A stretch of 64,000 bases of DNA from Nocardioides salarius. GTDB taxonomy: Bacteria; Actinomycetota; Actinomycetes; Propionibacteriales; Nocardioidaceae. Position 1 is the first letter of the stretch, and each line of letters opens with the position of its first letter. The notes beneath the pieces were generated by a model that was given only the letters and a program-made list of their open reading frames with translations, made no database searches and was not told where the DNA came from. Both the position numbers and the translations under genes were made by a program. The stretch spans positions 1,426,001 to 1,490,000 of the forward strand of contig NZ_JAFBBZ010000001.1 of the NCBI RefSeq assembly GCF_016907435.1, given 5' to 3'. Positions 1-37,821 of the stretch are shown in pieces.

Positions 1-199
1 TCAGCCCGATCATCCCCTCGGAGACGACGTCGGCGTGCTCGACGCTGCGCGGCAGCCCGGTGCGGACCCGGCCGGCGACGTACTTGACCAGGGGCGAGTA
101 GCGCAGCAGCAGCTCGTTGCGCGCCTCGAGGTCACGCTCGCCGCGCCAGGCCGCCCAGACGGGGTCGTCCTCGGGGGTGTCCTGCGGCCGCTCGGTCAC
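1..199 (-). CDS. whiG: WhiG/FliA-family RNA polymerase sigma factor (N-terminal part, cut by window edge)
   Basis: This is the N-terminal 66 codons of a sigma-28-type factor; the rest lies left of the window. The GTG at 199-197 is the first start after an in-frame TAG 12 bases upstream. The protein reads through an acidic leader and then YSPLVKYVAGRV, GLPRSVEHAD and SEGMIGL, the region 1.2/2.1 block characteristic of Streptomyces WhiG and FliA. Such factors recognise TAAA/TCAA-type -35 and GCCGATAA-type -10 boxes. It lies 71 bases downstream of the major pilin gene on the same strand, and an RsiG-like anti-sigma gene sits at 9829-10350, so it probably directs the pilus promoters. A different sigma-70 paralogue cannot be fully excluded from 66 residues, but the motif match is strong. 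Confidence 0.88.
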   Translation of the reverse strand, partial: MTERPQDTPEDDPVWAAWRGERDLEARNELLLRYSPLVKYVAGRVRTGLPRSVEHADVVSEGMIGL

Positions 200-228
200 G
201 GGACTTGTCTACCCGAGCAGGAACGACG

Positions 229-262
229 ACGGCGCGCCGCCCCCGAGGGGACGGCGCGCCGT
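229..262 (-). terminator. hairpin after the major pilin gene
   Basis: The sequence cggcgcgccg occurs twice (230-239 and 252-261) around a C-run/G-run loop, giving a very stable stem just past the pilin stop codon. No T-run follows, which is common for actinobacterial terminators. It separates pilA from the sigma gene, so sigma transcription from the pilin promoter would need read-through. Confidence 0.6.
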
Positions 263-270
263 GAAGAGAC

Positions 271-723
271 TCAGCCCTGATCTGCAGCCGCGACCGCCGT
301 GTATTCGGCAGTGCAGTCCACGCCAGTCAAGCCACCTTCGCCGGAGTCGTAGTAGAAGGTGTCGGTGCCCGCGGTTCCGCCCTCACGCGTTCCCGTGGCG
401 CAGAATCCATCAGCATTGGCAGACACAAGCTTGATGACGTTGTTGCCCGTCTTCTTGAAGTCGTAACCGTCTGCGATAAGCAGCGCCATCTTATTGGCAT
501 AGGCGTTGTTGTCGACGAGATAGGTGCCCTGGACAGTCCCGAGGTTCTTCAGATCCGACTGGACCGACGCGTCAGCCGCCTTCTCGCGCTGCGACAGGAA
601 CACCGGGATCGCGATGGCGGCGAGCACGCCGATGATCAGGACGACGACGAGGAGCTCGATCAGGGTGAAGCCCTGGTCCTTGCGCTCCTCGGAGTCCGCG
701 GGGCGGACAGGCAGCTTCAGCAT
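271..723 (-). CDS. pilA: major type IV pilin (prepilin)
   Basis: This 150-aa prepilin is the structural subunit of the pilus. It has an 18-residue positively charged leader ending in KDQG, followed by FTLIELLVVVLIIGVLAAIAIP, the class III prepilin signal with the conserved Phe+1 and Glu+5. PilD cleaves after the Gly and methylates the Phe. Two Cys near the C terminus (in FCATG and VDCTAE) may form the usual D-region disulfide. AAGGAGA lies 8 bases before the ATG. The gene is visibly less GC-rich than its neighbours, typical of pilins that vary fast or are highly expressed. It is divergent from the minor-pilin operon, and each side has its own TCAAGG-N14-nCCGAnnC promoter. Confidence 0.95.
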   Translation of the reverse strand: MLKLPVRPADSEERKDQGFTLIELLVVVLIIGVLAAIAIPVFLSQREKAADASVQSDLKNLGTVQGTYLVDNNAYANKMALLIADGYDFKKTGNNVIKLVSANADGFCATGTREGGTAGTDTFYYDSGEGGLTGVDCTAEYTAVAAADQG

Positions 724-792
724 GGGGGGATCTCCTTGGGAGGGATGGAGTGGCGCCGTGCCGAGAGGGGGATAGCGCCGTGTGCACCCGGG

Positions 793-820
793 GTGTCGGG
801 GTCGGGGAGGCCCGCCTTGA
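793..820 (-). promoter_or_regulatory. sigma-28/WhiG-type promoter of pilA
   Basis: On the minus strand TCAAGG (820-815) is followed after exactly 14 bases by CCCGACAC (800-793). Three other pilus promoters in this window have the same -35 hexamer, the same 14-base spacing and the same CCGA core. Transcription would start near 787, leaving a 5' leader of about 64 bases before the pilin ATG. WhiG/FliA consensus boxes are TAAA/TCAA and GCCGATAA with 15-16 bases between tetramer and octamer, which fits. Confidence 0.7.
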
Positions 821-847
821 GCCCGGTCTAGACCACCTGTCCAGCCC

Positions 848-875
848 TCAAGGTGCCGGGCCCGGGCGCCGAGAC
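848..875 (+). promoter_or_regulatory. sigma-28/WhiG-type promoter of the minor-pilin operon
   Basis: TCAAGG at 848-853, 14 bases, then GCCGAGAC at 868-875. Its -10 octamer is identical to that of the pilT2 promoter (11533-11526). The distance to the GTG of the first minor pilin (916) leaves a leader of about 35 bases containing the ribosome-binding site. Confidence 0.75.
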
Positions 876-915
876 CCACCGTGTCGACATCCCCCCGCGA
901 CCGAGGAGCCCAGTC

Positions 916-1392
916 GTGCCCGCACGCCCCGACGACGGCGTCACCATGGTCGAGCTCGTGGTGGTGATCGCGATGATGGGCGCCCTGATGGCCTTCGCGG
1001 TGGTCGGCTGGTCGGCCTGGGCGCGCGCCTCCGCGCAGGACGGCGCCGCCTCGACGCTCGAGGGCACGCTGCGCCAGGCCCAGCAGCAGGCGGTCAGCGA
1101 CGGGTGGGCGACCTGCGTGCAGTTCGACGCGGCGGCCGACACCTGGACGACGTACGAGGGCGCGTGCGGCAGCGGCGGTGCCGTGCTCACCGGGCCGGTC
1201 GGCCTGGGTGACGGGCGGCTCGACCTCGTCGACGTGGCGTTCTCGCCGACCACCGGCGGCAGCACCGCCGGCGTCACCTTCTCGGCGCGCGGCACCGCCA
1301 CCCCGGGGCGGGTGCGGATCGCCCGCGACGGCAGCGACCGCGTCGTCACCATCGCGGTGGAGGGGCTGACCGGCCGTGTCACGACCCGCTGA
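916..1392 (+). CDS. minor pseudopilin, GspH/FimT type
   Basis: This 158-aa pseudopilin probably belongs to the pilus tip or initiation complex. The leader ends in DDG, then VTMVELVVVIAMMGALMAFAVVG: prepilin cleavage site, Glu+5 and the hydrophobic helix. The remainder is a small beta-rich domain of GspH/FimT length, with two Cys (in ATCVQF and EGACGS). The GTG at 916 is chosen because GAGGAG (903-908) lies 7 bases upstream. A longer reading from 853 would put a proline-rich stretch before the leader and would overlap the promoter. The stop overlaps the next gene by 17 bases, so the two are translationally coupled. Confidence 0.85.
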   Translation: MPARPDDGVTMVELVVVIAMMGALMAFAVVGWSAWARASAQDGAASTLEGTLRQAQQQAVSDGWATCVQFDAAADTWTTYEGACGSGGAVLTGPVGLGDGRLDLVDVAFSPTTGGSTAGVTFSARGTATPGRVRIARDGSDRVVTIAVEGLTGRVTTR

Positions 1393-3328
1393 GGAGACGC
1401 GCGGGCAGACCCGCGACCAGGCCCACGACCAGGCCCCCGACGGAGGCTTCAGCCTCGTCGAGGTCGTGGTCTCGGTGGGCATCCTGGTGCTGCTGATCAC
1501 CTTCGTGCTGCCGGCGCTGCTGGTCGGCATCAAGGCCGACGCCGTCGCCCAGCGCACCACCCAGGCACGCAACCTCGCGCAGGCGCAGATGGAGCGCCTG
1601 CGCAACCTCCCCTTCCACGTCGCCTACGACGTCGGCAGCGAGTACGTCGACCTGCTCGACCGCTACTACGAGGACCTCGGCGCGCCCACCGCGACGGTCG
1701 TCTGCGGCCCCAGCGGCGACCGGACCGTGCCCACGACCGGCTGGACCGGCTACGTCACCGGTGCCGCCCGGTGCTCGTGGGAGCCGGCCACCGGCCCGTT
1801 CTTCCGGCAGGTGCAGGTCGGCAGCGGCGACGGCGCCGGGTTCGTCACCGTCACCACCACCCAGCTGCTCTCCGACGCCTCGCCGCCCCAGGTCGTGACC
1901 CCTCCGGCCGACTGGGACTCCCAGCGCAGCGGCCGGGACTCGCCGCCCGCCTCCCAGGTCGGGGTGACCGTGACCGTCTTCTCCTCGCTGGCCGGCGACC
2001 GCGAGCCGGTCAGCACCAGCAGCCAGCTGACCCGGCAGAGCCTGGCCACCCCCCGCGTGGAGGCCTCCGTGCAGGTCGCGGCCCTGCAGCTCGGCACCAA
2101 CGTGGCCGCCACCGACCCCGCCCTCGCCGACCCGGTCGCCGTGCCGGTGACCCTCTCGGCAGGGCTGGTCGACCTGGCCGGCTCGGTCACGGCCACCAGC
2201 CGCACCGACGCCGTGCTCGGCTCGACCCTGACCGGCCTCGGCACCGGCGCCCAGGCTCGCGGCGCCTCCGCCTCGGGGGCGGCGCCCGGCGACCAGTCGG
2301 TGGTCTCGACGGGCTCGCTGGCCGGGCAGCTCGACGCCAGCGGCTGCCAGCTGGTCTGCTGGGGCGGCACCCGCACCACCGCCTTCGCGGTGCGCGCCAG
2401 CAACGGCCTGCCCCTCGTGGCCGACCCGGCCGCGCCGGCCACCGCCACCGTCACCGACCTGTCGTCGGGCGGGGTGTCCCTGGCCGGGGGCGCCGACGCC
2501 GACTACCGCGAGCGGCTCTCCCTCGCCGGCCCGCTCGTGCGCCTGGCCGGTGGTGCCACACCGGTGAAGTCGGGCATCTCCAGCTCCTGCCAGGTCGCGG
2601 AGACGGGCGAGAGCGTGCGCGTGGTCGCCGGCGGCTGGCTGCGCACCGCCGACCGGGTGCCCAGCAGCGCCGCCCTGCAGGTCGACGCCTGCGGCGCCGC
2701 GCGCGCCTCGGCCCTGGCTGTGCTGCCGACCACCTTCGCGCCCGAGGGCGTGCTCCAGGTCCAGCTGGTGCGCGCCGCCGCCCGGTGCACGGTCAGCGGC
2801 GGCGCGCACACGGCCACGACCGCGGTCGACTACGAGGCCGTCGTACGCCGCTGGACCGGCGCGAGCCCCGACCCCTACACGACCGTCGCCACGGTGCGGC
2901 CCGACGCCACGACCGACCCGCTCGCCGGGCTCGACCTCGACACGCTGCCGGTGCCCGGGCACGGCGTGCTGGGCGACTACATCGCATCCTGGACGTCGCT
3001 GACCCGGGACCGGGTGGTCCGCACCACCGGCGCCGGCTCGGCCACCGTCGACGTCCCGGCGCTGGTCTCGGTGGTCACCCAGCCCGTGCGGACCGGCACC
3101 GAGCCGCTGACGACCAGCAGCCCCAGCCCGACACCGAGCCCGACCCCCAGCCCGTCGCCCAGCCCGTCGCCCACACCGACCGCCGAGCCCGACGCCGACC
3201 CGACGGCCTCGCCCAGCCCGACCGCGGAGCCCGCCCCGGCCCCGCCGGAGCCGGACCTCGTCGACCCCGCCTCGTCGGTGTCGGTCTCGGTCGGCGCCCT
3301 GTCGTGCTCGGCCCTGGACGCCCGATGA
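1376..3328 (+). CDS. large minor pseudopilin (PilV-like) with Pro/Ser/Thr-rich C-terminal region
   Basis: The 650-aa protein begins with a hydrophilic leader (DGG) and FSLVEVVVSVGILVLLITFV, a prepilin signal with Glu+5. Its body is several times longer than an ordinary PilV (about 150-200 aa). It consists of beta-rich sequence with scattered Cys and a Ser-Pro/Thr-Pro run near residues 580-630. The size suggests a pilus-tip adhesin presented by a pseudopilin stalk; that is inference, because I recognise no named adhesin domain. The GTG start at 1376 lies inside the previous gene, and the stop overlaps the next start as ATGA. The Pro/Ser/Thr stretch comes from a repetitive DNA tract around 3120-3240, which may be length-variable. 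Confidence 0.8.
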   Translation: MSRPAEETRGQTRDQAHDQAPDGGFSLVEVVVSVGILVLLITFVLPALLVGIKADAVAQRTTQARNLAQAQMERLRNLPFHVAYDVGSEYVDLLDRYYEDLGAPTATVVCGPSGDRTVPTTGWTGYVTGAARCSWEPATGPFFRQVQVGSGDGAGFVTVTTTQLLSDASPPQVVTPPADWDSQRSGRDSPPASQVGVTVTVFSSLAGDREPVSTSSQLTRQSLATPRVEASVQVAALQLGTNVAATDPALADPVAVPVTLSAGLVDLAGSVTATSRTDAVLGSTLTGLGTGAQARGASASGAAPGDQSVVSTGSLAGQLDASGCQLVCWGGTRTTAFAVRASNGLPLVADPAAPATATVTDLSSGGVSLAGGADADYRERLSLAGPLVRLAGGATPVKSGISSSCQVAETGESVRVVAGGWLRTADRVPSSAALQVDACGAARASALAVLPTTFAPEGVLQVQLVRAAARCTVSGGAHTATTAVDYEAVVRRWTGASPDPYTTVATVRPDATTDPLAGLDLDTLPVPGHGVLGDYIASWTSLTRDRVVRTTGAGSATVDVPALVSVVTQPVRTGTEPLTTSSPSPTPSPTPSPSPSPSPTPTAEPDADPTASPSPTAEPAPAPPEPDLVDPASSVSVSVGALSCSALDAR

Positions 3329-3999
3329 GCCGCGGCCCCGTGGCGACGCAGCCGCTCCCCCGCGACGCCGGCATGACGATGGCCGAGGTGCTGGTCTCGA
3401 TGATGCTCTTCGCCGTGCTCGGCTCGGTGCTGCTGTCCTTCGCGATGGCCACCGCCCGGGTCACCGACCGCATCCAGGTCTCCGGCGACCTGACCGGCGA
3501 GTCGCGGCTGGCCTTCCAGCGCTTCTCCCGCGAGCTGCGCCAGGCCAGCGACATCCGCGGCGTGCAGTTCTCGACCGGCACCGGCACCACCACCGCGATC
3601 ACGTTCTGGACCGACTTCAACGGCAACGGTGTCGTCGACCTCGACGCGAGCGACCCGGAGGTGCTCACCTACCGCTGGGACCCCGACAGCCAGCGCCTGA
3701 CCCTGACCGCCAACGACGCCTCCGGCACCGCCGTGACCCGCCCGGTGCTCGCCGGCCGGGTCACCACCTTCGACCTGCAGCTGCGCAGCAGCCTGTGGCA
3801 GCACGACACCTCCGGCGACGGGGTGCCCACGACCTGGCAGGAGCTCGACGCCTCGGTCGTGGGCAACCACAACGGCGTCCCCGACGACCCCGAGCTGGAG
3901 CACGTCGACCTGATCGGGGTCGAGCTGAGCGTCACCGAGGACGACGTCGAGCACGTCTTCTCCACCCAGACCGACCTGCGCAACCGCGCCCAGAGCTGA
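3325..3999 (+). CDS. minor pseudopilin, PilW-like, with EF-hand-like loops
   Basis: This 224-aa protein has leader RDAG followed by MTMAEVLVSMMLFAVLGSVL, a prepilin N terminus with Glu+5. The following RLAFQRFSRELRQASD is typical of PilW/GspJ-type minor pilins. Two acidic loops, DFNGNGVVDLDASD (about residue 95) and DTSGDGVPTTW (about residue 162), look like calcium-binding EF loops, as in calcium-dependent pilus tip proteins. It starts with ATG overlapping the previous stop (ATGA) and is followed after 10 bases by the PilX-like gene. Confidence 0.83.
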   Translation: MSRGPVATQPLPRDAGMTMAEVLVSMMLFAVLGSVLLSFAMATARVTDRIQVSGDLTGESRLAFQRFSRELRQASDIRGVQFSTGTGTTTAITFWTDFNGNGVVDLDASDPEVLTYRWDPDSQRLTLTANDASGTAVTRPVLAGRVTTFDLQLRSSLWQHDTSGDGVPTTWQELDASVVGNHNGVPDDPELEHVDLIGVELSVTEDDVEHVFSTQTDLRNRAQS

Positions 4000-4009
4000 G
4001 GACCGGCCC

Positions 4010-5377
4010 ATGCACGAGACGAGCCGCCACCGCGACGAGGGCAGCGCCCTGGTGATCACCGTGATGGTGATGGCCCTGATGGCCGTGCTGGGCACCACGG
4101 TGCTCGGGGTCACCGTCAACAACCTCGGCGCGACCCGCCGCGCCACCGACGCCACCCTGGCCCTCGACGCCGCCGACGCGGGGCTCAACCAGGCGGTGGC
4201 CTACCTGCGCTCCAGCGGCACCCGGGCCCTGGACGCCTGCTCGCCGGCCTGCGGCGCGGCGAACCCCTGGGGCGACGAGGGGGCCCCGATGAGCGCGCCG
4301 GTCGCCAACAGCGACGACCAGCGCTACGAGGCCTGGATCGTGCCGCAGCCCGGCGGCAGCGCCGACGCGCGCACCTACCGCGTCCACTCCCGCGGGCTCG
4401 CCGGCGCCGGCGAGGCCCGCGCCCAGCGCCTGGTCGAGGCCGACGTGACCGTCTCGCTCGTCGACGTCGGGCTGCCGCTGGGGGTCTACGCCCGCTCGGT
4501 GCAGGGGGCCGGCACCCCGGACCTGACCGGGGTCAGCATCTTCTCCACCGGCTGCGTGTGGAACCGCTCCAAGATCGACTTCGGCGGCACCACCGACGCG
4601 GCGTACGGCATCCCCGCCGCCGTGCACAGCTCGCAGGTGATCACCGACCGCAACGGCAACAACAAGACCTGCAGCGGCTCGGACTCGAAGGCGATCCACC
4701 GCTCCCAGGCGTGCCCGTCGGGGGCCTTCCGCTGGGACCAGGACTCCATCGGCGGCCCCTGCTCCGACCTGGCCGGCGCACACCCGCGCTACTACGGCCG
4801 CGACGACGGCGACGGCGACGGCGACATCGACGTCGACGGCACCTTCCTGGCCGACGACGCGGCGCTGCTGGACCTCTTCGGCATCGAGGACGACCCGCTG
4901 CCGGAGTGGAAGCTGGCCGAGCTGCGCACCGTGGCCACCTCGCAGGGCAGCTACTCCCGGTTCGCGTCGGGGTGGAGCGTGCCGGACCCCACGACGTACC
5001 CCAACTCGGTGCTCTACTTCGACCTGACCCGCACCGACCCCGGCGGAACCGTGGACCTGAAGGAGCTCGGCAGCACCTGGGCGCAGAGCAGCTGCGAGGA
5101 CGGCGCGTGGACCCGCTCGCTGCTCATCGTCATCGACGGCGGCAACGTCAAGATGAACGGCAACAGCGAGGTCGCGGCCAGCATCGTGCTGACCTCGCGG
5201 ACCTACGGCGAGGTCGACAAGGGCAACGGCAACCCCGACTACGTCGGCACGCTCTTCGCCAACACCCTCAACCTCGCCGGGGCCTTCGACTTCGAGCTCA
5301 ACCAGTGCTTCCTCGACAACCTCAGCCCCAGCCTCTTCTCGGTCTCCGTGGAGGACTACCGGGAGATCGACCGCTGA
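4010..5377 (+). CDS. PilX-like pilus assembly protein
   Basis: The 455-aa protein has a short leader with EGSALVITVMVMALMAVLG. The hydrophobic segment lacks the usual Glu+5, as in many PilX/GspK-type proteins. Next comes AADAGLNQAVAYLRSSGT, the conserved PilX helix. The middle carries an Asp-rich DDGDGDGDIDVDGTF run (about residue 265), a possible calcium loop. The C-terminal part reads like the polymer-forming beta structure seen in PilX-like proteins of Gram-positive pili. It is the last gene of the minor-pilin operon and converges on pilC across the palindromic block at 5396-5535. Confidence 0.78.
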   Translation: MHETSRHRDEGSALVITVMVMALMAVLGTTVLGVTVNNLGATRRATDATLALDAADAGLNQAVAYLRSSGTRALDACSPACGAANPWGDEGAPMSAPVANSDDQRYEAWIVPQPGGSADARTYRVHSRGLAGAGEARAQRLVEADVTVSLVDVGLPLGVYARSVQGAGTPDLTGVSIFSTGCVWNRSKIDFGGTTDAAYGIPAAVHSSQVITDRNGNNKTCSGSDSKAIHRSQACPSGAFRWDQDSIGGPCSDLAGAHPRYYGRDDGDGDGDIDVDGTFLADDAALLDLFGIEDDPLPEWKLAELRTVATSQGSYSRFASGWSVPDPTTYPNSVLYFDLTRTDPGGTVDLKELGSTWAQSSCEDGAWTRSLLIVIDGGNVKMNGNSEVAASIVLTSRTYGEVDKGNGNPDYVGTLFANTLNLAGAFDFELNQCFLDNLSPSLFSVSVEDYREIDR

Positions 5378-5395
5378 CCGCTGCCGCCTCGGGCG

Positions 5396-5535: not shown

Positions 5536-5563
5536 GGGGCCGGCCGGGGGCAGCGGCAGCAGG

Positions 5564-6781
5564 TCAGCCGATCAGCTCGAAGACCGAGAAGATCGGCATG
5601 TAGAGGGCCACGATCATCCCGCCGACGACCAGGCCGAGGCCGGCGATCATCAGCGGCTCGATGAGGGAGGTGAGGGCCTCGGTGGTGGCCTCGACCTCCT
5701 CGTCGTAGAACTTGGCGATGCGGTGCAGCATCTGGTCCATCGCACCGGTCTCCTCGCCGGAGGCGATCATCTGCACGACCATCGCGGGGAAGACCTCGTG
5801 GCGGGCCAGCGGGCCGGCGACCGACTCGCCGGCGGCGACGGAGCGGCGTACGTCGGCGACGGCGTGGGCCACCACGGTCGAGCCGCAGGTCTCGGCGACC
5901 ACGTCGAGGGCCTGCAGGATGGGTACGCCGGAGCCCAGGAGGGTGCCCAGGTTGCGGGTGAAGCGGGTCAGCGCGATCTTGGCGAAGAGCGGCCCGAAGA
6001 CGGGCAGTCGCAGCTTGAGCGGGTCGAGGACCTCGCGCACCCGCTGGGTGCGGCCGTAGCGGCGCCACCAGGCCACGAAGGCGACCGTGGCGACGACCCC
6101 GGCCGGCACCAGGACGCCCATCGCCCCGGAGATGGTGACCAGCACCTGGGTCGGCAGCGGCAGCTCGCCGCCCAGGTCGGCGAACATGTTCTCGAAGATC
6201 GGGACGATGAAGAGCAACATGCCGATGCACATCAGCGCGGCCATGATCAGCACGACCACCGGGTAGGTCATCGCCGACTTCACCTTGCCGCGCAGGCGCA
6301 CGTCGGCCTCGAAGGTGTCGGCCACCTGGCGCATCGCGGAGTCGAGGAAGCCGCCGGCCTCGCCGGCGCGGGTCATGTTGACCATCAGCGGCGGGAAGAC
6401 CGCCTCCTCGGCGGCGAACGCGGTCGAGAGCGCCTCGCCGCCCTCGACGGCCTGACGAACGCCGGTGAGCACCCGGCGCAGCTCGGGGTTCTCGGCCTGC
6501 TCGGCCAGGATGCCCAGCGAGCGCAGCAGCGGCAGGCCCGAGTCGATCATCGTGGCGAGCTGGCGGGAGAAGACCGCGAGCTCCTTGAGCTTGACCCGGC
6601 GCGCGACCGGCAGCCGGATCTCGGTGTTGAGGCCGGTGCCGGCGCGGGTGATCTGCAGCGGCTGGTAGCCCATCGCGACCAGCCGCTCGGCCACCGCCCC
6701 CTCGGAGGGGGCCTTGACCTTGCCCTCGCGGAAGCGGCCGGCGGCGTCGCGGACCTTGTAGTCGAACTGCAGGGTGCTCAC
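5564..6781 (-). CDS. pilC: type IV pilus inner-membrane platform protein
   Basis: The 405-aa PilC/GspF protein anchors the assembly and retraction ATPases in the membrane. It has the N-terminal ARM-like domain and two GspF repeats, each beginning FSRQLATMIDSGLPLL (about residue 70) or FTRNLGTLLGSGVPIL (about residue 275). Three hydrophobic segments lie near 170-195, 220-240 and 375-400. It starts with GTG at 6781, overlapping the pilT1 stop by four bases (GTGA), and is the last gene of the pilT2-rsiG-pilB-pilT1-pilC operon. Confidence 0.95.
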   Translation of the reverse strand: MSTLQFDYKVRDAAGRFREGKVKAPSEGAVAERLVAMGYQPLQITRAGTGLNTEIRLPVARRVKLKELAVFSRQLATMIDSGLPLLRSLGILAEQAENPELRRVLTGVRQAVEGGEALSTAFAAEEAVFPPLMVNMTRAGEAGGFLDSAMRQVADTFEADVRLRGKVKSAMTYPVVVLIMAALMCIGMLLFIVPIFENMFADLGGELPLPTQVLVTISGAMGVLVPAGVVATVAFVAWWRRYGRTQRVREVLDPLKLRLPVFGPLFAKIALTRFTRNLGTLLGSGVPILQALDVVAETCGSTVVAHAVADVRRSVAAGESVAGPLARHEVFPAMVVQMIASGEETGAMDQMLHRIAKFYDEEVEATTEALTSLIEPLMIAGLGLVVGGMIVALYMPIFSVFELIG

Positions 6782-11553: not shown

Positions 11554-11582
11554 GGGCACCTCGGCACCGGTCCGCGGCCTCG

Positions 11583-11637: not shown

Positions 11638-11641
11638 GGGC

Positions 11642-11669
11642 TCAAGGTGCACCTCGCGACGACCGATGC
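11642..11669 (+). promoter_or_regulatory. sigma-28/WhiG-type promoter of the pilM-pilD operon
   Basis: TCAAGG at 11642-11647, 14 bases, ACCGATGC at 11662-11669. Same hexamer and spacing as the other three pilus promoters, with CCGAT matching the WhiG -10 core. The pilM ATG is 44 bases downstream. Confidence 0.7.
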
Positions 11670-11713
11670 CCCAGTCAGCCCTGCACCCAGGGCGCGGGAG
11701 CGGGAGGACGACA

Positions 11714-12763
11714 ATGGCACGCAGCGTGGTGGGCCTCGACATCGGCAGCGCGGCCGTCAGCGGCACCGAGGTGCGCCTGGGCGGCAGCGCGGCCGGCCGG
11801 GGCTCGCGGGTACGCCGCTCGGGCAGCGTGGCGCTGCCGCCCGGCGCCGTGGAGGCCGGGCTGGTGCGCGACCGCGCCGCCGTCGTGTCGGCGCTGCGCC
11901 AGCTGTGGGCCGAGCAGCACTTCGGCACCCGCCAGGTGCACCTGGGCGTCGGGTCGGCCTCGGTGCTGGTGCGCCAGCTCGACCTCGACTGGATGCCCGA
12001 CGACGACCTGCGCCGCTCGCTGCGCTTCCAGGTCGCCGACCTGCTGCCGGTGCCCGTCGACGACGCCAACATCGACCACGTCCCGCTCGGCGAGGCGCAG
12101 GGCGTCGACGACCAGGGCGCCCCGCGCCGCCTGTCCCGGATCCTGCTGGTGGCCACCGCCCGCGAGGCCGTCGACGGGCTGGTGCGCGCCGTCGAGGCCG
12201 CCAAGCTGGTGCCGCTGACCGCCGACCTGTCCGCCTTCGCCGCCGTCCGCGCGGTGGCCGGCACGCCCGTGCCCCCCGAGACCCCCGGCGGGCCAGGTGT
12301 GCCCGAGGCCGTCGTCGACGTCGGCGCCCAGACCGTCTCGGTCGCGGTGCACGTCGACGGCCGGCCGTGGTTCGTGCGGGTCGCCTCAGGGCTCGGCGGC
12401 GAGATGCTCACCCGGGTGCTGATGGAGCAGACCGGGCGCAGCCGCGACGAGGCCGAGGCGCTCAAGCGCACCCCCGGGACGCTGCCCGAGGTGGGCCGCT
12501 CCGCGCGGTCGCTGGAGGAGTCGGTGCTGCTGGAGGGCGTCGGGCGCCTGCTCGCCGAGGTCCGCACCACCCTCGACTTCCACTCCGGACACGACCCCGC
12601 GACCGCGCCCCGCCGGGTGGTGCTCACCGGCGGCGGCAGCCTGCTGCCCGGCCTGGTCGAGCACGGTCGGGCCGCCTGGGGCCTGCCGGTGCGCCTGCAC
12701 GACGACGCGGCCTCCCCCGCCGGTGCCGTGGCGCTCGGGCTGGGCCTGGAGGGCGCGGCATGA
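11714..12763 (+). CDS. pilM: type IV pilus assembly protein PilM (actin-like)
   Basis: The 349-aa actin-fold ATPase of the cytoplasmic pilus ring binds the N-terminal tail of PilN. GLDIGSAAVSGTEV at the N terminus is the phosphate-1 loop. AVVDVGAQTVSVAVH (about residue 197) is the phosphate-2 loop, and VVLTGGGSLLPGL (about 303) is the adenosine loop. FQVADLLPVPVDDANIDH is typical of PilM. GGGAGG lies 6-7 bases before the ATG. The stop overlaps pilN (ATGA). Confidence 0.93.
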   Translation: MARSVVGLDIGSAAVSGTEVRLGGSAAGRGSRVRRSGSVALPPGAVEAGLVRDRAAVVSALRQLWAEQHFGTRQVHLGVGSASVLVRQLDLDWMPDDDLRRSLRFQVADLLPVPVDDANIDHVPLGEAQGVDDQGAPRRLSRILLVATAREAVDGLVRAVEAAKLVPLTADLSAFAAVRAVAGTPVPPETPGGPGVPEAVVDVGAQTVSVAVHVDGRPWFVRVASGLGGEMLTRVLMEQTGRSRDEAEALKRTPGTLPEVGRSARSLEESVLLEGVGRLLAEVRTTLDFHSGHDPATAPRRVVLTGGGSLLPGLVEHGRAAWGLPVRLHDDAASPAGAVALGLGLEGAA

Positions 12764-13635
12764 GCGGCCTGCTGACCCGGCCGCTCGGGCGGCGCGGCGA
12801 GGACCCTCCCCGCATCCCCGAGCAGACGGCGTACGCCGGGCGGACCGGCGTCAACCTGCTCTCGCCGTGGGTGCGCGAGGGGCTGCGGGTGCGTGCGCTG
12901 CGCAAGCGGTTCGCCTACGCGCTGCTCGCCCTGGTCGTGGCCGCTGGAGGTGCCTGGGCCTTCCACCAGCTGCTGCTGCGCGAGGCCTCCGCCGAGCTGC
13001 GCGGCGAGCAGGCGGTCGGCGCCGCGCTGGAGGCGCGCATCGACGACCTGGCCCCCGTCAGCGGCTACATCGCCGACGTGCGGACCCGCTCGCAGGAGGT
13101 CCACGACACGATGCGGACCGAGATCTCGCACGCGACCGTGCTCGACACGCTGGTCGACCTCGCGCCGGGCGGCACCAGCTTCGAGTCGACCACGCTGGTG
13201 CTGCCGCTGGCCGCCCCTCCGGGGGCCCCAGCGGCCCCCGCCGACGGCACCGCCGCCGCTCCGGGCACCGACGCGGGCACCGACCCGGCCGAGCCGGTCG
13301 CCCCCGAGGACGACCCCGCTCGCGGCCTGCTGGCCACCTGCCCCGGGCCGGACCCCTTCGCGACCACGACCGTGGTGGCCTGCCTCGAGCTCAGCGGCAC
13401 CGCACCGAGCCGGCGCGTGGTGGCGCAGCTGGTGCAGGCGCTGGCCGCCGAGAAGCTCTTCATCGAGCCCTTCATCACCACCACGACCACCGACGAGGCC
13501 GCCGAGGTCAGCTTCACCGGCTCGGTCGGGGTCGACCCCCGGGCCTTCACCGGGCGCTACGACGACCTGCTCGAGCGCCTCGACCCCACGACCGCCGACG
13601 AGACCGACCAGACCCTCGAGGAGGACGAGCGATGA
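12760..13635 (+). CDS. pilN: type IV pilus assembly protein PilN
   Basis: The 291-aa bitopic membrane protein links PilM to PilO. A cytoplasmic N terminus contains TGVNLLSPWV, the PilN motif (usually INLLP) that docks in PilM. One transmembrane helix lies at about residues 50-70, then a coiled coil and a ferredoxin-like periplasmic domain. Residues about 150-185 are an Ala/Pro/Asp-rich insertion, which makes the protein longer than Gram-negative PilN (about 200 aa). It overlaps its neighbours by four bases on both sides. Confidence 0.88.
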   Translation: MSGLLTRPLGRRGEDPPRIPEQTAYAGRTGVNLLSPWVREGLRVRALRKRFAYALLALVVAAGGAWAFHQLLLREASAELRGEQAVGAALEARIDDLAPVSGYIADVRTRSQEVHDTMRTEISHATVLDTLVDLAPGGTSFESTTLVLPLAAPPGAPAAPADGTAAAPGTDAGTDPAEPVAPEDDPARGLLATCPGPDPFATTTVVACLELSGTAPSRRVVAQLVQALAAEKLFIEPFITTTTTDEAAEVSFTGSVGVDPRAFTGRYDDLLERLDPTTADETDQTLEEDER

Positions 13636-14291
13636 GCCTGCACACCGTCACCGCGACCCGCGTGCTGGGCGCCCTCGCGCTGCTGCTGGTCGCCGCCGCC
13701 GCGTGGCTGCTGCTGCTCGGGCCGGCCCGGGCCGACCTCGCCGAGGCACGCCAGGAGGTCGTCGCGACCGCCGACGCCAACGCGCTGCGCACCGTGCAGC
13801 TGGCCGGCCTCGAGCAGCAGGCCGGCGACCTCGGCGCCGTCGACGACGTCGCCGACGACCTGGCCACGCTCTTCCCGCCGACCGCCGACCAGCCCGGCTT
13901 CTTCGAGATGGTCGACGCCGCCGCGACCGCCGCCGGCATCGCGCCCGGCAAGGTCACCGCCCTCTCCCCCGGCCTGCCCACCGCCCCCGTCGAGCAGGAC
14001 CCCGCGACGGTCCGGCTCGCCGAGCAGAGCGTCACCCTCGACGTCGAGGCCGACGAGCGGAGCCTGCGGCGCCTGCTCGCCGAGCTCGAGTCGATGGACC
14101 GCTCCTTCCTGGTGCGCTCGGTGACCCTGACCGCGAGCAGCGAGGCCGGCGCGGGGGCCGCCCGGGCCTCGATCCAGGGCTCGACCTTCGTCGCGGCCCC
14201 GGTCGAGCGCCCCCGCGGCGCCGGTGCGGACGCGGGCGCAGCCACGGACCAGCCCGGTGCCGGTGGTGGCGACTCCACGGGCGGTCGCTGA
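13632..14291 (+). CDS. pilO: type IV pilus assembly protein PilO
   Basis: The 219-aa protein has one transmembrane helix at about residues 12-32, a coiled coil, LFPPTADQPGFFEMVDAAATAAGI, and a ferredoxin-like fold with LRRLLAELESMDRSFLVRSVTL, matching PilO. The C-terminal 30 residues are Gly/Ala-rich. It follows pilN with an ATGA overlap, and one base separates its stop from the GGDEF gene. Confidence 0.9.
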   Translation: MSLHTVTATRVLGALALLLVAAAAWLLLLGPARADLAEARQEVVATADANALRTVQLAGLEQQAGDLGAVDDVADDLATLFPPTADQPGFFEMVDAAATAAGIAPGKVTALSPGLPTAPVEQDPATVRLAEQSVTLDVEADERSLRRLLAELESMDRSFLVRSVTLTASSEAGAGAARASIQGSTFVAAPVERPRGAGADAGAATDQPGAGGGDSTGGR

Positions 14292-14292
14292 G

Positions 14293-15678
14293 ATGGCCGC
14301 ACCCCGGCGTCCGGGCCGGCGACGGCCGCTGAGCCGCCGCGACCCGCTGACCGGCCTGCGCGACCGCGACAGCCTGCTGCAGCGCGGCCAGGCCCTCCTC
14401 GACACCGCCGCCAAGGAGCGCCGGCGCGCCGCCGTCGCGCTGGTCGACGTCGACCGGCTCAAGCAGGTCAACGACGCCCTGGGCCACGCCGCCGGCGACC
14501 GGCTGCTGGTCGAGACCGCCGTGCGCCTGCGCCGCACCGTGGGGCCCCACGCGGTGCTGGCCCGGGTCGGCGGCGACGAGTTCGCCCTGGTCGTGCGGCT
14601 CGAGGGCGACACCGAGCCGCAGGCCCTGGCCGGCTCGATCCTGGCGGCCCTCGGCGAGCCGGTGCACGTCGACGGTGTCGAGGTGCCCACCGGCGCCTCG
14701 GTCGGGGTCGCCCTCGCCGGGGTCGACGGCACCCGCGTCGAGACCCTGCTCGCGGCGGCTGACCAGCTCATGTACGCCCGCAAGGGCGGCGGCCCGCGCC
14801 CCGGCGTGGTGACGCTGTCGGGCCGCGCGGCCCCGGCCGACGACGACCTGGCCGCCGACCTGGCCCGGGCGCTGGGCGGCGACGGGCACGGCGAGCTGCG
14901 CCTGCATCACCAGCCGCAGGTCCGCCCCGACGGCACCATCGTCGGCTTCGAGGCGCTGCTGCGCTGGCAGCATCCCCGGCTGGGGCCGCTCGGCCCGGCT
15001 GGGTTCCTGCCCCTGGCGGCGCGCCACGGCCTGGCCACGGCGCTCGACGACCTGGCGGTGCGCCAGGCCCTCGAGGACCACGCGGTGCTCAGCGTCTGCG
15101 CCCCCGAGGCGGGCGTCTCGGTCAACCTGTCCGCGCACAGCCTGCTCGACCCCGCCCTGCCCGACCGGCTGGCCGGGCACCTGGTCGACGCCGGCGTCGA
15201 CGGCTCGCGGCTGACCCTCGAGGTCAGCGAGTCGGCGACCGGGCTCAGCGCCGGCGAGCCCACGGCGTACGCCGCCCTGGGTGCCTGCGGCGCCGGGCTG
15301 AGCGTGCAGGACTTCGGCACCCACCGGGCCTCGCTGACCTCGCTGTGGGCCAGCCCCGCCGTGCGCGAGGTCAAGCTGCACCCGCGCCTGGGCGCCGAGG
15401 TGGCCCGCGACGACGAGGTGGCCCGGCGGGTGCGGGCGCTGGTCTACGCCGCCCACGGCCTGGGCCTGCGCGTGGTCGCCGACGGGGTCGAGACCCGGGA
15501 GGCGGCCGCCGCGCTGGAGGGCCTCGGCTGCGACGCGGTGCAGGGCTTCGCGGTGGCCCCGCCCACCCCCCTCATCGACCTCGTCGAGTGGGTGGGGTTC
15601 TGGAACCGCTCGCACCGCCGCGGCCCCGAGGCGCCCGCCGCCCCTGCGCGCGGGGTCCCCGTCGGGGGGCAGCCGTGA
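14293..15678 (+). CDS. GGDEF-EAL protein, likely diguanylate cyclase with degenerate EAL domain
   Basis: The 461-aa soluble protein has no sensory domain. The GGDEF domain (about residues 18-165) has an intact RVGGDEF site and no RxxD inhibitory site five residues before it. The EAL domain (about 185-435) keeps EALLRW and the VNLS Asn. However, the metal-binding DDFGTG is QDFGTH, the catalytic KID is KLH, and AEGVE is ADGVE. Synthesis of c-di-GMP is therefore more likely than hydrolysis, and the EAL may act as a sensor of the nucleotide. It sits inside the pilM-N-O-pilD operon (one base after pilO, GTGA overlap with pilD), so the pilus operon carries its own c-di-GMP enzyme. Confidence 0.88.
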   Translation: MAAPRRPGRRRPLSRRDPLTGLRDRDSLLQRGQALLDTAAKERRRAAVALVDVDRLKQVNDALGHAAGDRLLVETAVRLRRTVGPHAVLARVGGDEFALVVRLEGDTEPQALAGSILAALGEPVHVDGVEVPTGASVGVALAGVDGTRVETLLAAADQLMYARKGGGPRPGVVTLSGRAAPADDDLAADLARALGGDGHGELRLHHQPQVRPDGTIVGFEALLRWQHPRLGPLGPAGFLPLAARHGLATALDDLAVRQALEDHAVLSVCAPEAGVSVNLSAHSLLDPALPDRLAGHLVDAGVDGSRLTLEVSESATGLSAGEPTAYAALGACGAGLSVQDFGTHRASLTSLWASPAVREVKLHPRLGAEVARDDEVARRVRALVYAAHGLGLRVVADGVETREAAAALEGLGCDAVQGFAVAPPTPLIDLVEWVGFWNRSHRRGPEAPAAPARGVPVGGQP

Positions 15679-16502
15679 GCGCGGCGGTGCTGCCCCTCCC
15701 GCTGGTGGCGGGCCTCGCGGGCCTGCTGGGCCTGCTGGTGGGCTCGTTCGTCAACGTGGTCGTGCACCGGGTGCCGGCCGGGTTGTCGGTGGTGCGGCCC
15801 CGCTCGGCCTGCCCCGCCTGCGGTCACGAGGTGCGCGAGCGCGACAACGTGCCGGTCGTCTCCTGGCTGCTGCTGCGCGGGCGCTGCCGCGACTGCCGGG
15901 TGCGGATCCCCCTGCGCTACCCGGCCGTGGAGGCCGGCACGGCGGTCCTCTTCGCGGTGGTCGCGCTCGCCGAGACCCGCCCCCCGGTGCTGCTCGCCTG
16001 CCTGGTCGTGGCCGGCGCGGGCGTGGCGCTGGCCCTGATCGACCTCGACCACGGCCGGCTGCCCTTCGCGGTGACCGGCACCGCGGCGCTGCTGGCCGGC
16101 GCCGCGCTGCTGGCCGGCTGGACCACCACGTGGGCCCTGCAGGGCCCCTCTGCCGCGGCCGGCCAGCTGGTCGGGCCGCTGGTCGGCGTGCTGGCCTGGG
16201 GCGGGGTGTACGCCGCCCTGTGGGCGGTCACGGCGGGGCGCGGCATGGGCCTGGGCGACGTCGCCCTGGCGCCGCTGCTGGGCCTGGTGCTGGGTGCGGT
16301 GGGCGTGAGCGCCGCCGTCGTGGGGCTGGCCCTCGGCTTCGCCCTGGGCGCCGTCGGGTCGCTGCTGCTGACGGGCCTGGGCACCGTGCGGCGCGGCCAG
16401 CGCATCCCCTTCGGCCCCTTCATGCTGGCGGGCGCCGGGCTGGGCCTCGTCGCCGGCGAGCCCCTCGCCACCGGCTACCTGCGCCTGGTCGGGATCGCCT
16501 GA
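15675..16502 (+). CDS. pilD: prepilin peptidase / N-methyltransferase
   Basis: The 275-aa polytopic membrane aspartic protease cleaves prepilins and methylates the new N terminus. The N-terminal part has GSFVNVVVHRVP and a tetracysteine zinc site, CPAC then CRDC. The protease half has the two catalytic Asp regions, ALIDLDHGRLP and GMGLGDVALAP, and about seven membrane segments. The GTG start overlaps the previous stop. It would process the pilin at 271-723 and the minor pilins at 916-5377. Confidence 0.93.
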   Translation: MSAAVLPLPLVAGLAGLLGLLVGSFVNVVVHRVPAGLSVVRPRSACPACGHEVRERDNVPVVSWLLLRGRCRDCRVRIPLRYPAVEAGTAVLFAVVALAETRPPVLLACLVVAGAGVALALIDLDHGRLPFAVTGTAALLAGAALLAGWTTTWALQGPSAAAGQLVGPLVGVLAWGGVYAALWAVTAGRGMGLGDVALAPLLGLVLGAVGVSAAVVGLALGFALGAVGSLLLTGLGTVRRGQRIPFGPFMLAGAGLGLVAGEPLATGYLRLVGIA

Positions 16503-16528
16503 CCGCCACCGGCGTCGGCGCCCCGCAC

Positions 16529-16534
16529 TAGGCT
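16529..16534 (+). promoter_or_regulatory. -10 box (TAGGCT) upstream of the second GGDEF-EAL gene
   Basis: TAGGCT fits the housekeeping actinobacterial -10. Transcription would begin near 16541, 40 bases before the ATG. The sigma-28-type hexamer is absent, so this gene may be under different control from the pilus operons. Confidence 0.4.
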
Positions 16535-16580
16535 CCGCACCGACGGGCCACGACGGCCCGCGACACCCCCGGGGGTTGCG

Positions 16581-18071: not shown

Positions 18072-18296
18072 GAACCCCAGGCGAGGCACCCCCGCCGTAG
18101 GAGCACCGGGTGGTCACGGCATGGCCCGAAATGACTACGCACCCCAGTAGCCGATCGGTCGAACGTGGCCCGACCCCCTTCCCCTGGGCGCCCGGGGAGG
18201 CGAGGATTCGTGCGCACCCCAGCCCCGTGCGTCACACCCGTCACCCACCCCCCCACGGTGACGGGACGGGGCTTCTCGAGGACGGACCCCCCCCCC

Positions 18297-18830
18297 GTGC
18301 ACACTTCCCCCACCCTGATCCCCACCCCGGCACCGACCCTGGCCCCGGCCCCCCGCCGAGCACGACCGGCCACCACGTCGCCGGCCCCCGCCGCACCCCC
18401 CGTGCTGGCGCTCACCGCGACCCCCGCCGCCACCCAGCGGGTGCGCGCGACCCTCGCGAGCGGCGGGCTGACCAACCCGGTGCGAGGACTGCACGACAGC
18501 AGCGACGCGGCGCGCTACCTGCTGGCCCGCGGCCCGTGGCAGGACCGGGCCCGGCACCCGCTGCCGGCCGTGGTGGTGGCCGACCTGCACCTGCGCGCCG
18601 GCGCCCCGGACGGCTCGGTGCTCGACCTCCTCCGGCTGCGCCGCGAGCGGCCCGAGCTGCAGCACATCCCGGTGGTCGTGGTGGGCCGCGACGCCGACGA
18701 CGAGGAGATCGACGCGGTGCACGACCTGGGGGCGGCGGCGTACCTCGCCCACACCGTGGCCGGCTCGGTGCTCGTCGACGTCATCCGTGGCCTGGGGATG
18801 CGCTGGTCGCTGGCTCCCGCCGCGTCGTGA
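18297..18830 (+). CDS. receiver-like (degenerate response regulator) domain protein
   Basis: A Pro/Ala/Thr-rich N-terminal region precedes a domain with receiver topology. PAVVVADLHL places an Asp where the phosphoacceptor sits, and IPVVVVGRDADDEEIDAVHDLGAAAYL resembles beta4-alpha4-beta5. The conserved Lys of the K-P motif is missing (AHTV follows YL), so phosphorylation may not occur. The start is uncertain: the GTG at 18297 has GAGGAC upstream, and the frame stays open to about 18165. The stop overlaps the EAL gene (GTGA), suggesting that it acts with that phosphodiesterase. Confidence 0.65.
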   Translation: MHTSPTLIPTPAPTLAPAPRRARPATTSPAPAAPPVLALTATPAATQRVRATLASGGLTNPVRGLHDSSDAARYLLARGPWQDRARHPLPAVVVADLHLRAGAPDGSVLDLLRLRRERPELQHIPVVVVGRDADDEEIDAVHDLGAAAYLAHTVAGSVLVDVIRGLGMRWSLAPAAS

Positions 18831-20203
18831 GCCTCGCGCCACTGCCCGGCCCCCTCCAGCCCGGCCCCCTCCAGCCAGGGTCCCTGCGGCCCGGGCCCCT
18901 CGCACCGAGCAGCCTCGTGCCGGGCGCTCGGCCCGCCGACCCGCGTCCGGGCCTGCGGGTCGCCTCGCGCGACGGCGACGCCGAGCCCACCCTCGCGTGG
19001 CTGCTGGAGCAGCCCGAGCGGCCGGTGGCGGTGCTCAGCGCCGTCGTCTCCAACGCGGGCGACCTGCTCGAGCGCTTCGGCACCGACGGGCTCGAGCAGG
19101 TCCTCTCGACCCTGGGTGAGCGGCTCCGGCGCGGCTGCGCGGCGCGGGTGCTGCGGGTCTCGCCGCTGGGCGGGCTCGTCTTCACGGTGCCGTCCCCGGC
19201 CGAGCCGAGCCCGGCCGGCGACCCGGCCCTCGCGGCGATCACCGGCGCGGAGGAGTCGCTGCGCGACTTCGTCGAGGTCGGGGGCGAGCAGGCCTGGCCC
19301 GTGGTGAGCCTGGGCGTACGCCGCGTGGGCGCCCGCGACGAGGCCGCCCAGCTGCTGCGCGACGCCAGGTCGGCGCTGGTGCGCGCCCAGCAGGAGAGCC
19401 CCGGCACGACCACCTGCTGGCCGGCCGGGCGGACCGGCTCCGACCTGGGGCGGCTGCGGCTGGTCGACGACCTGGTCGGGGCGCTGCGCCAGCACCCCGA
19501 GCAGCTGGCCCTGGCCTACCAGCCGGTCGTCGACCTGACCACCGGCGAGGTCGGTGGCGTCGAGGCGCTGCTGCGCTGGACCCACCCCGAGCGCGGCGCC
19601 GTCTCGCCGCTGGTGGCGGTGGCCGCCGCCGAGCGCAGCGGGCTGGTGCGCGAGCTCGGCCTGCTGGTCGTCGACCGGGCGCTGGCCCAGCTGCGCGCCT
19701 GGCAGCGGCCCACCCCGCTGACCATGCACGTCAACGTCTCGCCCCTGCAGCTGCGCGCGCCCGGGTTCGTGCCCGCCGTGGCCCGCCTGCTCGAGCAGCA
19801 CGACGTGCGGGCCTCCGCGCTGCTGCTGGAGATCACCGAGAGCGCCGCGATGTCGGGCGACCCCGAGGTGCTCGCGGCCCTCGACGCGCTGGGCGAGCTC
19901 GGGGTGCGCCTGGGCATCGACGACTTCGGCACCGGCTACTCCTCGATCTCGCGGCTGCAGCAGCTGCCGGTCGACACCGTCAAGATCGACCGCTCGCTGG
20001 TCTGCGAGATCGGCGGCTCGGCGCCCGCCTTCGAGATGCTGCGCGCCGTGCTGGGCCTGCTGCGGACCTCCCCGGGCCTGACGATCGTCGCCGAGGGCGT
20101 CGAGACCGCCCTGCAGTCGGCCCACCTGCGCGCCCTGGGCTGCCGCTGGGCGCAGGGCTACCACCTCGGCCGACCCGTCCCCCCGGGCGACGTGCGCCTC
20201 TGA
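18827..20203 (+). CDS. EAL-domain c-di-GMP phosphodiesterase with degenerate GGDEF domain
   Basis: The 458-aa protein starts with a short Pro/Leu/Gln repeat (LQPGP units), then a vestigial GGDEF domain (SPLGGLVF at the active-site position). A complete EAL domain follows from about residue 215. All catalytic signatures are present: EALLRW, HVNVSP, LEITES, DDFGTGYSS, VKIDRSLV, AEGVET and QGYHLGRP. It should hydrolyse c-di-GMP to pGpG, opposing the two GGDEF proteins upstream. It is coupled to the receiver-like protein. The gene ends the pilus/c-di-GMP block. Confidence 0.9.
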   Translation: MSLAPLPGPLQPGPLQPGSLRPGPLAPSSLVPGARPADPRPGLRVASRDGDAEPTLAWLLEQPERPVAVLSAVVSNAGDLLERFGTDGLEQVLSTLGERLRRGCAARVLRVSPLGGLVFTVPSPAEPSPAGDPALAAITGAEESLRDFVEVGGEQAWPVVSLGVRRVGARDEAAQLLRDARSALVRAQQESPGTTTCWPAGRTGSDLGRLRLVDDLVGALRQHPEQLALAYQPVVDLTTGEVGGVEALLRWTHPERGAVSPLVAVAAAERSGLVRELGLLVVDRALAQLRAWQRPTPLTMHVNVSPLQLRAPGFVPAVARLLEQHDVRASALLLEITESAAMSGDPEVLAALDALGELGVRLGIDDFGTGYSSISRLQQLPVDTVKIDRSLVCEIGGSAPAFEMLRAVLGLLRTSPGLTIVAEGVETALQSAHLRALGCRWAQGYHLGRPVPPGDVRL

Positions 20204-37818: not shown

Positions 37819-37821
37819 GTG

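What the first reader, a model, noticed from the sequence alone, without database searches (positions are those of the whole stretch)
1..20203. A sigma(WhiG)-RsiG-c-di-GMP switch built into a type IV pilus locus
Seen: a WhiG/FliA-type sigma gene beside the pilin, an RsiG-like gene coupled inside the pilT2-pilB operon, a GGDEF protein inside the pilM-pilD operon, a second GGDEF protein, and an intact EAL enzyme. Known: in Streptomyces, RsiG bound to c-di-GMP sequesters WhiG to delay sporulation, and the same pair has been tied to pilus genes in Rubrobacter. Inferred: here the switch controls pilus synthesis, with the pilus operons carrying both the anti-sigma and the enzymes that set its ligand. 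That makes a self-contained feedback circuit in a non-sporulating actinobacterium.
Basis: partly seen in the sequence, partly recalled or inferred. Interest (0 to 1): 0.93.

Follow-up and report, generated by a model that had tools for sequence, protein, structure and literature searches.

The report
Pilus cluster with built-in c-di-GMP switch
In this actinobacterium the gene clusters for a type IV pilus also hold a sigma factor gene, a gene for its likely c-di-GMP-dependent inhibitor, and genes for enzymes predicted to make and destroy c-di-GMP, so the pilus would be able to switch its own production on and off; the switch is known from Streptomyces sporulation and, in a simpler form, has been linked to pili in Rubrobacter.

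Summary
The cut sigma gene, completed from the genome, is a WhiG/FliA-family sigma, the only one over the family cut-off there. RsiG is a member of the RsiG family with two motif helices, translationally coupled inside pilT2-rsiG-pilB-pilT-pilC. New evidence: a two-box promoter of flagellar/WhiG type, TCAAG-N15-[ACG]CCGA, stands before all four pilus operons and recurs in 21 of 29 loci (53 sites at spacing 15; 0-2 at each other spacing from 8 to 23). Sigmas found with RsiG keep three residues that contact c-di-GMP in WhiG (13 of 13); flagellar-type FliA of the genus do not (0 of 16). In 59 same-genus genomes a clear RsiG occurs in 7, all with this pilus locus and this sigma. A close relative of the locus (G054) lacks rsiG, the sigma and the GGDEF/EAL genes. 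Prior art limits novelty: the switch was already proposed to control type IV pili, with c-di-GMP feedback, in Rubrobacter (PMC8325347), where RsiG is single-motif. New here: twin-motif RsiG embedded in the pilus motor operon, and its promoter family. Binding, response to c-di-GMP and its sign are untested.

The parts
1..199 (-). 5' part of the WhiG-family sigma gene (continues to about -532; 243 aa)
   Evidence: TIGR02479 218.4 bits, cut-off 189.6; best PDB match S. venezuelae WhiG 6pfv E 2.9e-62; K/G/R contact residues present
229..262 (-). 15-pair G+C-rich hairpin between pilA and sigma; possible attenuator without a T run
   Evidence: fold of 195-275: -42.7 kcal/mol, z -3.15; not listed by the terminator scan
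271..723 (-). pilA, major prepilin
   Evidence: Pfam N_methyl PF07963 37.6 bits
792..820 (-). predicted sigma-WhiG promoter of pilA(-sigma): TCAAGG-N14-CCCGACACC
848..876 (+). predicted sigma-WhiG promoter of the minor pilin operon: TCAAGG-N14-GCCGAGACC
   Evidence: not counted because of the gene start used there
853..5377 (+). minor pilin operon: GspH-like, PilV-like, PilW-like, PilX-like (true first start probably later than 853)
   Evidence: GspH 34.8 bits over cut-off for the first; N_methyl below its cut-off for the first three; no Pfam match for the fourth; order conserved in relatives
5564..6781 (-). pilC
   Evidence: T2SSF PF00482 222 bits
6778..8025 (-). pilT
   Evidence: TIGR01420 481.7 bits
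8012..9832 (-). pilB
   Evidence: T2SSE 453.4 bits and MshEN 47.8 bits
9829..10350 (-). rsiG, anti-sigma with two motif helices; motif 1 residues 48-63, motif 2 residues 132-147
   Evidence: PF22802; motif columns; overlaps ATGA and GTGA
10347..11477 (-). pilT2, first gene of the motor operon
   Evidence: TIGR01420 408.7 bits
11525..11553 (-). predicted sigma-WhiG promoter of pilT2-rsiG-pilB-pilT-pilC: TCAAGG-N14-GCCGAGACC
11642..11670 (+). predicted sigma-WhiG promoter of the pilM operon: TCAAGG-N14-ACCGATGCC
11714..14291 (+). pilM, pilN, pilO (ATGA overlaps)
   Evidence: PilM_2 109.9 bits; PilN below its cut-off; PilO without Pfam match, named by position and relatives
14293..15678 (+). GGDEF-EAL protein in the pilM operon; GGDEF kept, EAL motifs damaged: predicted diguanylate cyclase
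15675..16502 (+). pilD prepilin peptidase (GTGA overlap with the cyclase)
   Evidence: A24_N_bact 115 bits
16581..18071 (+). second GGDEF-EAL protein; GGDEF kept, EAL motifs damaged
18824..20203 (+). EAL protein with EAL signature motifs kept, no GGDEF match: predicted phosphodiesterase (frame open from 18110)
   Evidence: EAL PF00563 210 bits

Best explanation
A WhiG-family sigma gene and an RsiG-family gene with two motif helices sit inside this type IV pilus cluster, flagellar/WhiG-type promoter sequences stand before all four pilus operons, and RsiG is predicted to hold the sigma inactive when c-di-GMP is high, so that the pilus would be made when c-di-GMP is low. Steps: (1) shown by sequence: both partners belong to the families whose Streptomyces and Rubrobacter members form RsiG-(c-di-GMP)2-WhiG complexes, and the known c-di-GMP-contact residues are kept in region 2 of the sigma and, but for one residue (Ser132 for Glu), in RsiG. 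(2) Inferred: free sigma transcribes pilA (and itself by read-through past a strong hairpin), the minor pilins, pilT2-rsiG-pilB-pilT-pilC and pilM-N-O-cyclase-pilD. (3) Inferred: each burst also makes RsiG, coupled to the motor ATPases by overlapping frames, and one or two diguanylate cyclases, so c-di-GMP rises and armed RsiG shuts the sigma off: delayed negative feedback, giving pulses or a set level of pilus synthesis. (4) Inferred: the EAL enzyme at the end of the cluster resets the loop.
For: Sigma family. RsiG family and motifs; profile of 28 RsiG matches S. venezuelae RsiG 6pfj over nearly its whole length, E 5.6e-11; model with two long helices, 34-66 and 121-159, the four best Foldseek hits being chains of that RsiG, at E 2.5e-3 or weaker. 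Promoters: 53 sites at spacing 15, 0-2 at each of spacings 8-14 and 16-23, mean 0.12 (max 2) for 200 permuted patterns, 4 sites on the antisense strand only; pilM 15 of 17 loci, GspH 6 of 7, pilA 7 of 12, pilT 7 of 15. K/G/R residues 13 of 13 with RsiG, 0 of 16 flagellar type, two clades at 100/100. Of 59 same-genus genomes, the 7 with a clear RsiG are the 7 with a sigma of 212 bits or more, in the same locus; 0 of 52 others have one. Of 29 named loci rsiG directly follows pilT2 in 18, directly precedes the sigma in 7, neither in 4. No FlhA match here or in G035. In G031 and G010 the promoter precedes a PAS-GGDEF protein.
Against: No binding, expression or c-di-GMP measurement. The window's RsiG has Ser for Glu at the first place of motif 2 (Glu in 27 of 28). 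Its promoters are off the genus consensus: a strict consensus finds 0 sites in this genome, and 0 in G008 and G019, which also have RsiG. The loose pattern is not specific genome-wide: 24 hits in this genome, 4 at the pilus locus, reversed-pattern control 4. 8 of 29 loci show no site, and the loci tested overlap with the genomes in which I first saw the pattern. G054 has the same pilus type without rsiG or this sigma and keeps one good site, before pilM. The boxes may also be read by the flagellar sigma in flagellated relatives: a site lies by its gene in G010. Of 12 distant RsiG loci, none lies beside pilus genes.
Confidence: 0.83

Rival explanations
1. The sigma and RsiG control the pilus genes, but the local GGDEF/EAL proteins act on other targets, so there is no closed feedback loop through RsiG.
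For: Nothing measured ties these enzymes to RsiG; other GGDEF/EAL genes of the genome were not counted and may set the c-di-GMP level.
Against: The cyclase lies in the pilM operon, one base after pilO and overlapping pilD; many relatives carry such enzymes in the same cluster, in some behind the same promoter; G054, without rsiG and this sigma, has no GGDEF/EAL match in the 45 kb taken.
Confidence: 0.3
2. The neighbourhood is a relic: RsiG here is a weak or dead c-di-GMP sensor (Ser132 for Glu) and the sigma is always on or controlled otherwise.
For: The window's RsiG is the only one of 28 without Glu there; its promoters deviate from the consensus.
Against: The frame is intact and overlaps both neighbours; the other nine motif residues fit the motif or its known Q/H variation (variation from PMC8325347 section 5); the sigma keeps the contact residues.
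Confidence: 0.1
3. Another sigma factor reads the TCAAG/CCGA boxes and the WhiG-type sigma serves a different regulon.
For: A box pair also lies next to a flagellar-type sigma gene in G010, and 9 strict sites lie in 89 genomes without clear RsiG.
Against: This genome has no FlhA match and no other WhiG/FliA over the cut-off, yet all four operons have the boxes; strict sites: 11 in 7 RsiG genomes (7 of the 11 at the pilus locus) against 9 in 89 others.
Confidence: 0.06

Closest known systems
Rubrobacter (RsiG)2-(c-di-GMP)2-WhiG switch over type IV pili (PMC8325347)
   Same: WhiG and RsiG homologues; flagellar-type promoters before pilus operons and before cyclase/phosphodiesterase genes; one such enzyme gene (dgcX) inside the pilus cluster of R. 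xylanophilus; feedback loops proposed there.
   Different: There RsiG has one motif and works as a homodimer. Here RsiG has two motif helices and sits in the motor operon; the -35 box reads TCAA instead of TAAA.
Streptomyces RsiG-(c-di-GMP)2-WhiG sporulation switch (PMC8325347; structures 6pfj, 6pfv)
   Same: RsiG with two motif helices; sigma with K/G/R contacts; profile match over nearly the whole protein.
   Different: It controls sporulation; motif 2 there is E-S-R-Q-D, here mostly E-[ST]-R-H-D; the 11 genomes with Streptomyces-type RsiG (so judged) have no PilT over the cut-off.
Flagellar-type FliA of the same genus
   Same: Same sigma family and promoter class.
   Different: Separate clade (100/100), no K/G/R contacts (0 of 16), found also in genomes without RsiG.

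Membership tests
WhiG sigma factor | FliA_WhiG family score over the curated cut-off | tested here: met
   218.4 bits against 189.6
WhiG sigma factor | c-di-GMP contact residues Lys, Gly, Arg of sigma region 2 (K57, G61, R62 in S. venezuelae, PMC8325347 section 10) | tested here: met
   Present in 13 of 13 RsiG-associated sigmas incl. this one, 0 of 16 flagellar-type paralogues
WhiG sigma factor | Physically bound by RsiG | not testable with these tools
   needs protein work
RsiG anti-sigma | RsiG family score over cut-off | tested here: met
   PF22802 61.6 bits against 27; profile E 5.6e-11 to 6pfj
RsiG anti-sigma | First motif E-X3-S-X2-R-X3-[QH]-X3-D | tested here: met
   EDRVSYWRRVVHARTD, residues 48-63
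RsiG anti-sigma (twin-motif) | Second motif of the same form | tested here: inconclusive
   SEQLSAYRTALHRRID: S, R, H, D kept, Glu replaced by Ser in the window; Glu in the other 27 of 28
RsiG anti-sigma | Antiparallel coiled coil | tested here: inconclusive
RsiG anti-sigma | c-di-GMP binding | not testable with these tools
   needs ligand binding
Rubrobacter-type pilus switch | Flagellar/WhiG-type promoters before pilus operons | tested here: met
   4 of 4 operons here; 53 sites in 21 of 29 loci; the published consensus itself, up to 2 mismatches, finds none in the window
Rubrobacter-type pilus switch | Single-motif, homodimeric RsiG | tested here: not met
   173 aa with two motif helices

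The most novel reading that the evidence does not exclude
The pilus cluster carries its own sigma, its own c-di-GMP-armed twin-motif anti-sigma (made in step with the motor ATPases) and its own cyclases, a self-limiting module that is gained and lost as a unit; and RsiG is mainly a pilus regulator across the Actinobacteria, so sporulation control in Streptomyces would be a later take-over of a switch that had already become twin-motif.
Probability: 0.55. Interest if true: 0.78.

Novelty: new variant of a known kind. Interest (0 to 1): 0.66.

Why it matters
The published story has two ends: single-motif RsiG linked to pili in Rubrobacter and twin-motif RsiG controlling sporulation in Streptomyces. 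A twin-motif RsiG embedded in a pilus operon separates the two events, duplication and change of function, and makes their order testable in cultured Nocardioides. It also offers a compact feedback circuit in which anti-sigma and motor are made from one operon, and a promoter signature with which target genes can be sought in other genomes. In a sample of 396 genomes of the phylum, RsiG and PilT occur together more often than apart (203 with both of 248 with RsiG and 258 with PilT), which suggests that pilus control may be the commonest job of RsiG; the genomes are related, so this is a lead.

Tried and rejected
Published flagellar consensus TAAA/GCCGATAA as such, gaps 14-17: no site with up to 2 mismatches in the window; two of the 15 sites with 3 mismatches led to the boxes TCAAG/CCGA. 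Direct c-di-GMP control of the pilus motor through the MshEN part of PilB: Pfam finds MshEN, but a pattern for the c-di-GMP motif (recalled, not from a call) was found in 0 of 18 PilB frames of named relatives and 0 of 3 from loci without RsiG, and I did not see it in the window's PilB; by eye the PilB of G034 keeps an RLG...G stretch that the pattern missed, so this test is weak. Site at window 38321 (+): inside an IS110-type transposase gene, rejected. RsiG match in G028 (E 9.2e-4, counted by the tool among 8 of 96): no motif, taken as chance. Rfam was not searched.

Literature: Nocardioides + type IV pil + WhiG, 0 papers; RsiG + pilus, 7 papers, of which by the listing only PMC8325347 presents this switch and pili as its own result; WhiG + type IV pil, 11; Nocardioides + type IV pil, 16, of which 15 were listed, none on this by title. 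PMC8325347: abstract, introduction, sections 5, 10, 13, 14, 15 and found passages; its supplement was not read. PMC13232838, PMC13293333, PMC11064477: passages only. The library holds open papers only.

Counts to qualify: the phylum table rests on a list of 139 PilT-negative genomes that I made by hand by E-value; the tool's tally implies 138, one genome being borderline. The 29 loci are 28 named loci (L108, a second copy in the strain of L107, dropped) plus the window; the window's GspH site was masked there. Of the 18 loci with pilT2-rsiG, pilB follows on the same strand in 16; in L112 it is reversed and in L126 the contig ends. The 16 'flagellar-type' sigmas are so called from their clade; FlhA was sought in 8 genomes only.
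Full report
What is there. The window is bases 1426001-1490000 of a one-contig 4.47 Mb genome. Genomes that the tool places in its genus have contigs whose lengths equal those of named Nocardioides records (for example G019 and L105, 372365 bases), so the genus is Nocardioides by inference. The pilus cluster has four transcription units: pilA followed by the sigma gene (minus), minor pilins (plus), pilT2-rsiG-pilB-pilT-pilC (minus) and pilM-N-O-cyclase-pilD followed by a second GGDEF-EAL protein and an EAL protein (plus). Neighbouring frames of the motor operon and of pilM-N-O overlap by 4 bases or more, the cyclase starts one base after pilO, and pilD overlaps the cyclase by 4.

The sigma. 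The gene cut by the window edge is complete in the genome: 243 aa, 218.4 bits to FliA_WhiG, cut-off 189.6. Its best match among solved structures is S. venezuelae WhiG from the RsiG complex (E 2.9e-62). Three residues of WhiG region 2 that touch c-di-GMP (PMC8325347, section 10) are kept. I compared 13 sigmas that lie in a locus with RsiG and 16 flagellar-type FliA of the genus: K/G/R in 13 of 13 and 0 of 16, and a tree parts the two groups with 100/100 support (two flagellar rows are identical, and G042 and L125 are close).

The anti-sigma. RsiG of 173 aa matches Pfam RsiG; a profile of 28 relatives matches the S. venezuelae protein across both helices (E 5.6e-11), whereas the window's sequence alone matches the Rubrobacter single-motif proteins better (E 7e-7 against 0.0074). 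Motif 1 is complete in all 28. Motif 2 reads E-X3-[ST]-X2-R-X3-H-X3-D in most (Glu 27 of 28, Ser/Thr 28, Arg 28, His 25, Asp 24), the window's copy being the one with Ser for Glu. The model has two long helices; structure comparison ranks S. venezuelae RsiG first by Foldseek but weakly, and VIA-align scores unrelated UvsY chains at least as high.

The promoters. In the window, TCAAGG-N14-N-CCGA lies before each of the four operons, on the right strand. In the seven same-genus genomes with RsiG such boxes recur before pilus operons. On 29 loci (28 named plus the window) I counted non-coding sites within 300 bases upstream of recognised genes: 53 in 21 loci at a spacing of exactly 15, 0-2 at each other spacing from 8 to 23, mean 0.12 and maximum 2 for 200 permuted box pairs. 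The majority sequence is TCAAGT-N14-GCCGATG[AC]C. Its -10 part agrees with the flagellar/WhiG consensus GCCGATAA over GCCGAT; the -35 part differs by one base, TCAA against TAAA (PMC8325347, section 14). In single relatives a site precedes a GGDEF-EAL gene, pilD, or lies between rsiG and sigma (L106, L125, L132), and in G031 and G010 it stands 62 and 92 bases before a 740- or 671-aa protein with PAS domains and GGDEF. The window's own sites are poorer matches: a strict consensus finds none in this genome. A loose pattern over the whole genome gives 24 hits, of which these are four, so boxes alone do not define the regulon.

Distribution. Of 59 same-genus genomes (of 96 relatives searched), 7 have a clear RsiG, and an eighth, G028, only a marginal match without the motif; the same 7 have a sigma of 212 bits or more in the same locus, 0 of 52 others do. 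PilT over the cut-off occurs in 16 of 59, two PilT of this kind side by side in 8. The eighth of these, G054, has pilus proteins 74-77% identical to the window's for pilC, pilT, pilB and pilT2, but in the 45 kb taken no rsiG, no sigma and no GGDEF/EAL match, and its three best sigma matches are of the flagellar type. The simplest reading is loss of the whole switch, so it would be a separable module; gain elsewhere is not excluded. Among 29 named loci, 18 have rsiG right after pilT2, 7 have rsiG right before the sigma, 4 (MAGs labelled Mycobacterium, Acidothermus and twice Frankiaceae) neither. One MAG labelled Sporichthya has the order pilT2-rsiG-pilB (L119) but no site was counted there. In 12 distant RsiG loci of 9 to 19.5 kb no pilus gene was found, and a sigma match only weakly, about 7 kb away, in L146. 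In G148, a Rubrobacter-like genome by its RsiG, rsiG and the listed pilT are about 590 kb apart. In 396 genomes of the phylum 248 have an RsiG match (246 over the cut-off), 258 PilT over the cut-off, and 203 both.

Mechanism. By analogy to the two studied systems, c-di-GMP arms RsiG to bind the sigma. Both GGDEF proteins keep GGDEF and have damaged EAL motifs; the last EAL protein keeps the signature motifs (what the motifs mean is general knowledge). So the pilus operons would make both the anti-sigma and the cyclase that arms it: negative feedback. The 15-pair hairpin between pilA and sigma may let only part of the pilA transcripts reach the sigma gene. All of this is inference from sequence.

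Novelty. That this switch controls type IV pili and may feed back on c-di-GMP enzymes was proposed for Rubrobacter in 2021, where a cyclase gene also lies in one pilus cluster. What is added here is the twin-motif form in a pilus setting, its placement inside the motor operon, the promoter family, the residue signature that parts RsiG-partner sigmas from flagellar-type ones, and a relative without the module. I found no paper on it in the library searched.

Noticed in passing
window 18165-18830 (+): A 221-aa frame with strong codon-position GC bias overlaps the open frame before the EAL gene; it has no Pfam match and by eye resembles a response-regulator receiver.
   Followed up: partly
window 37819-39078 (+): IS110-family transposase gene (Pfam DEDD_Tnp_IS110 and Transposase_20).
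   Followed up: partly
window 55916 and 62051 (+): The same 24-base stretch (AAGTATCTCAGGACCCACCGACAA) at two places about 6 kb apart, perhaps part of a repeated mobile element.
   Followed up: no
L165 and L155: Strict consensus sites outside the pilus locus in G031 and G042 precede proteins that look like NERD-domain proteins (by eye), a possible second target of the sigma.
   Followed up: no
G054:C1:2135000-2139000 (L167): Two flagellar-type sigma genes in tandem, identical over the stretch compared.
   Followed up: partly
L107 and L108: Two copies of the pilus-switch locus on two contigs of Nocardioides mangrovi GBK3QG-3 with the same gene coordinates over the 20 kb held; perhaps an assembly effect.
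   Followed up: no
phylum sample: RsiG matches in 248 of 396 genomes drawn evenly from the phylum, against homologues in 134 genomes among 673 actinobacterial ones in the 2021 survey (differently drawn); single- and twin-motif forms both occur.
   Followed up: partly
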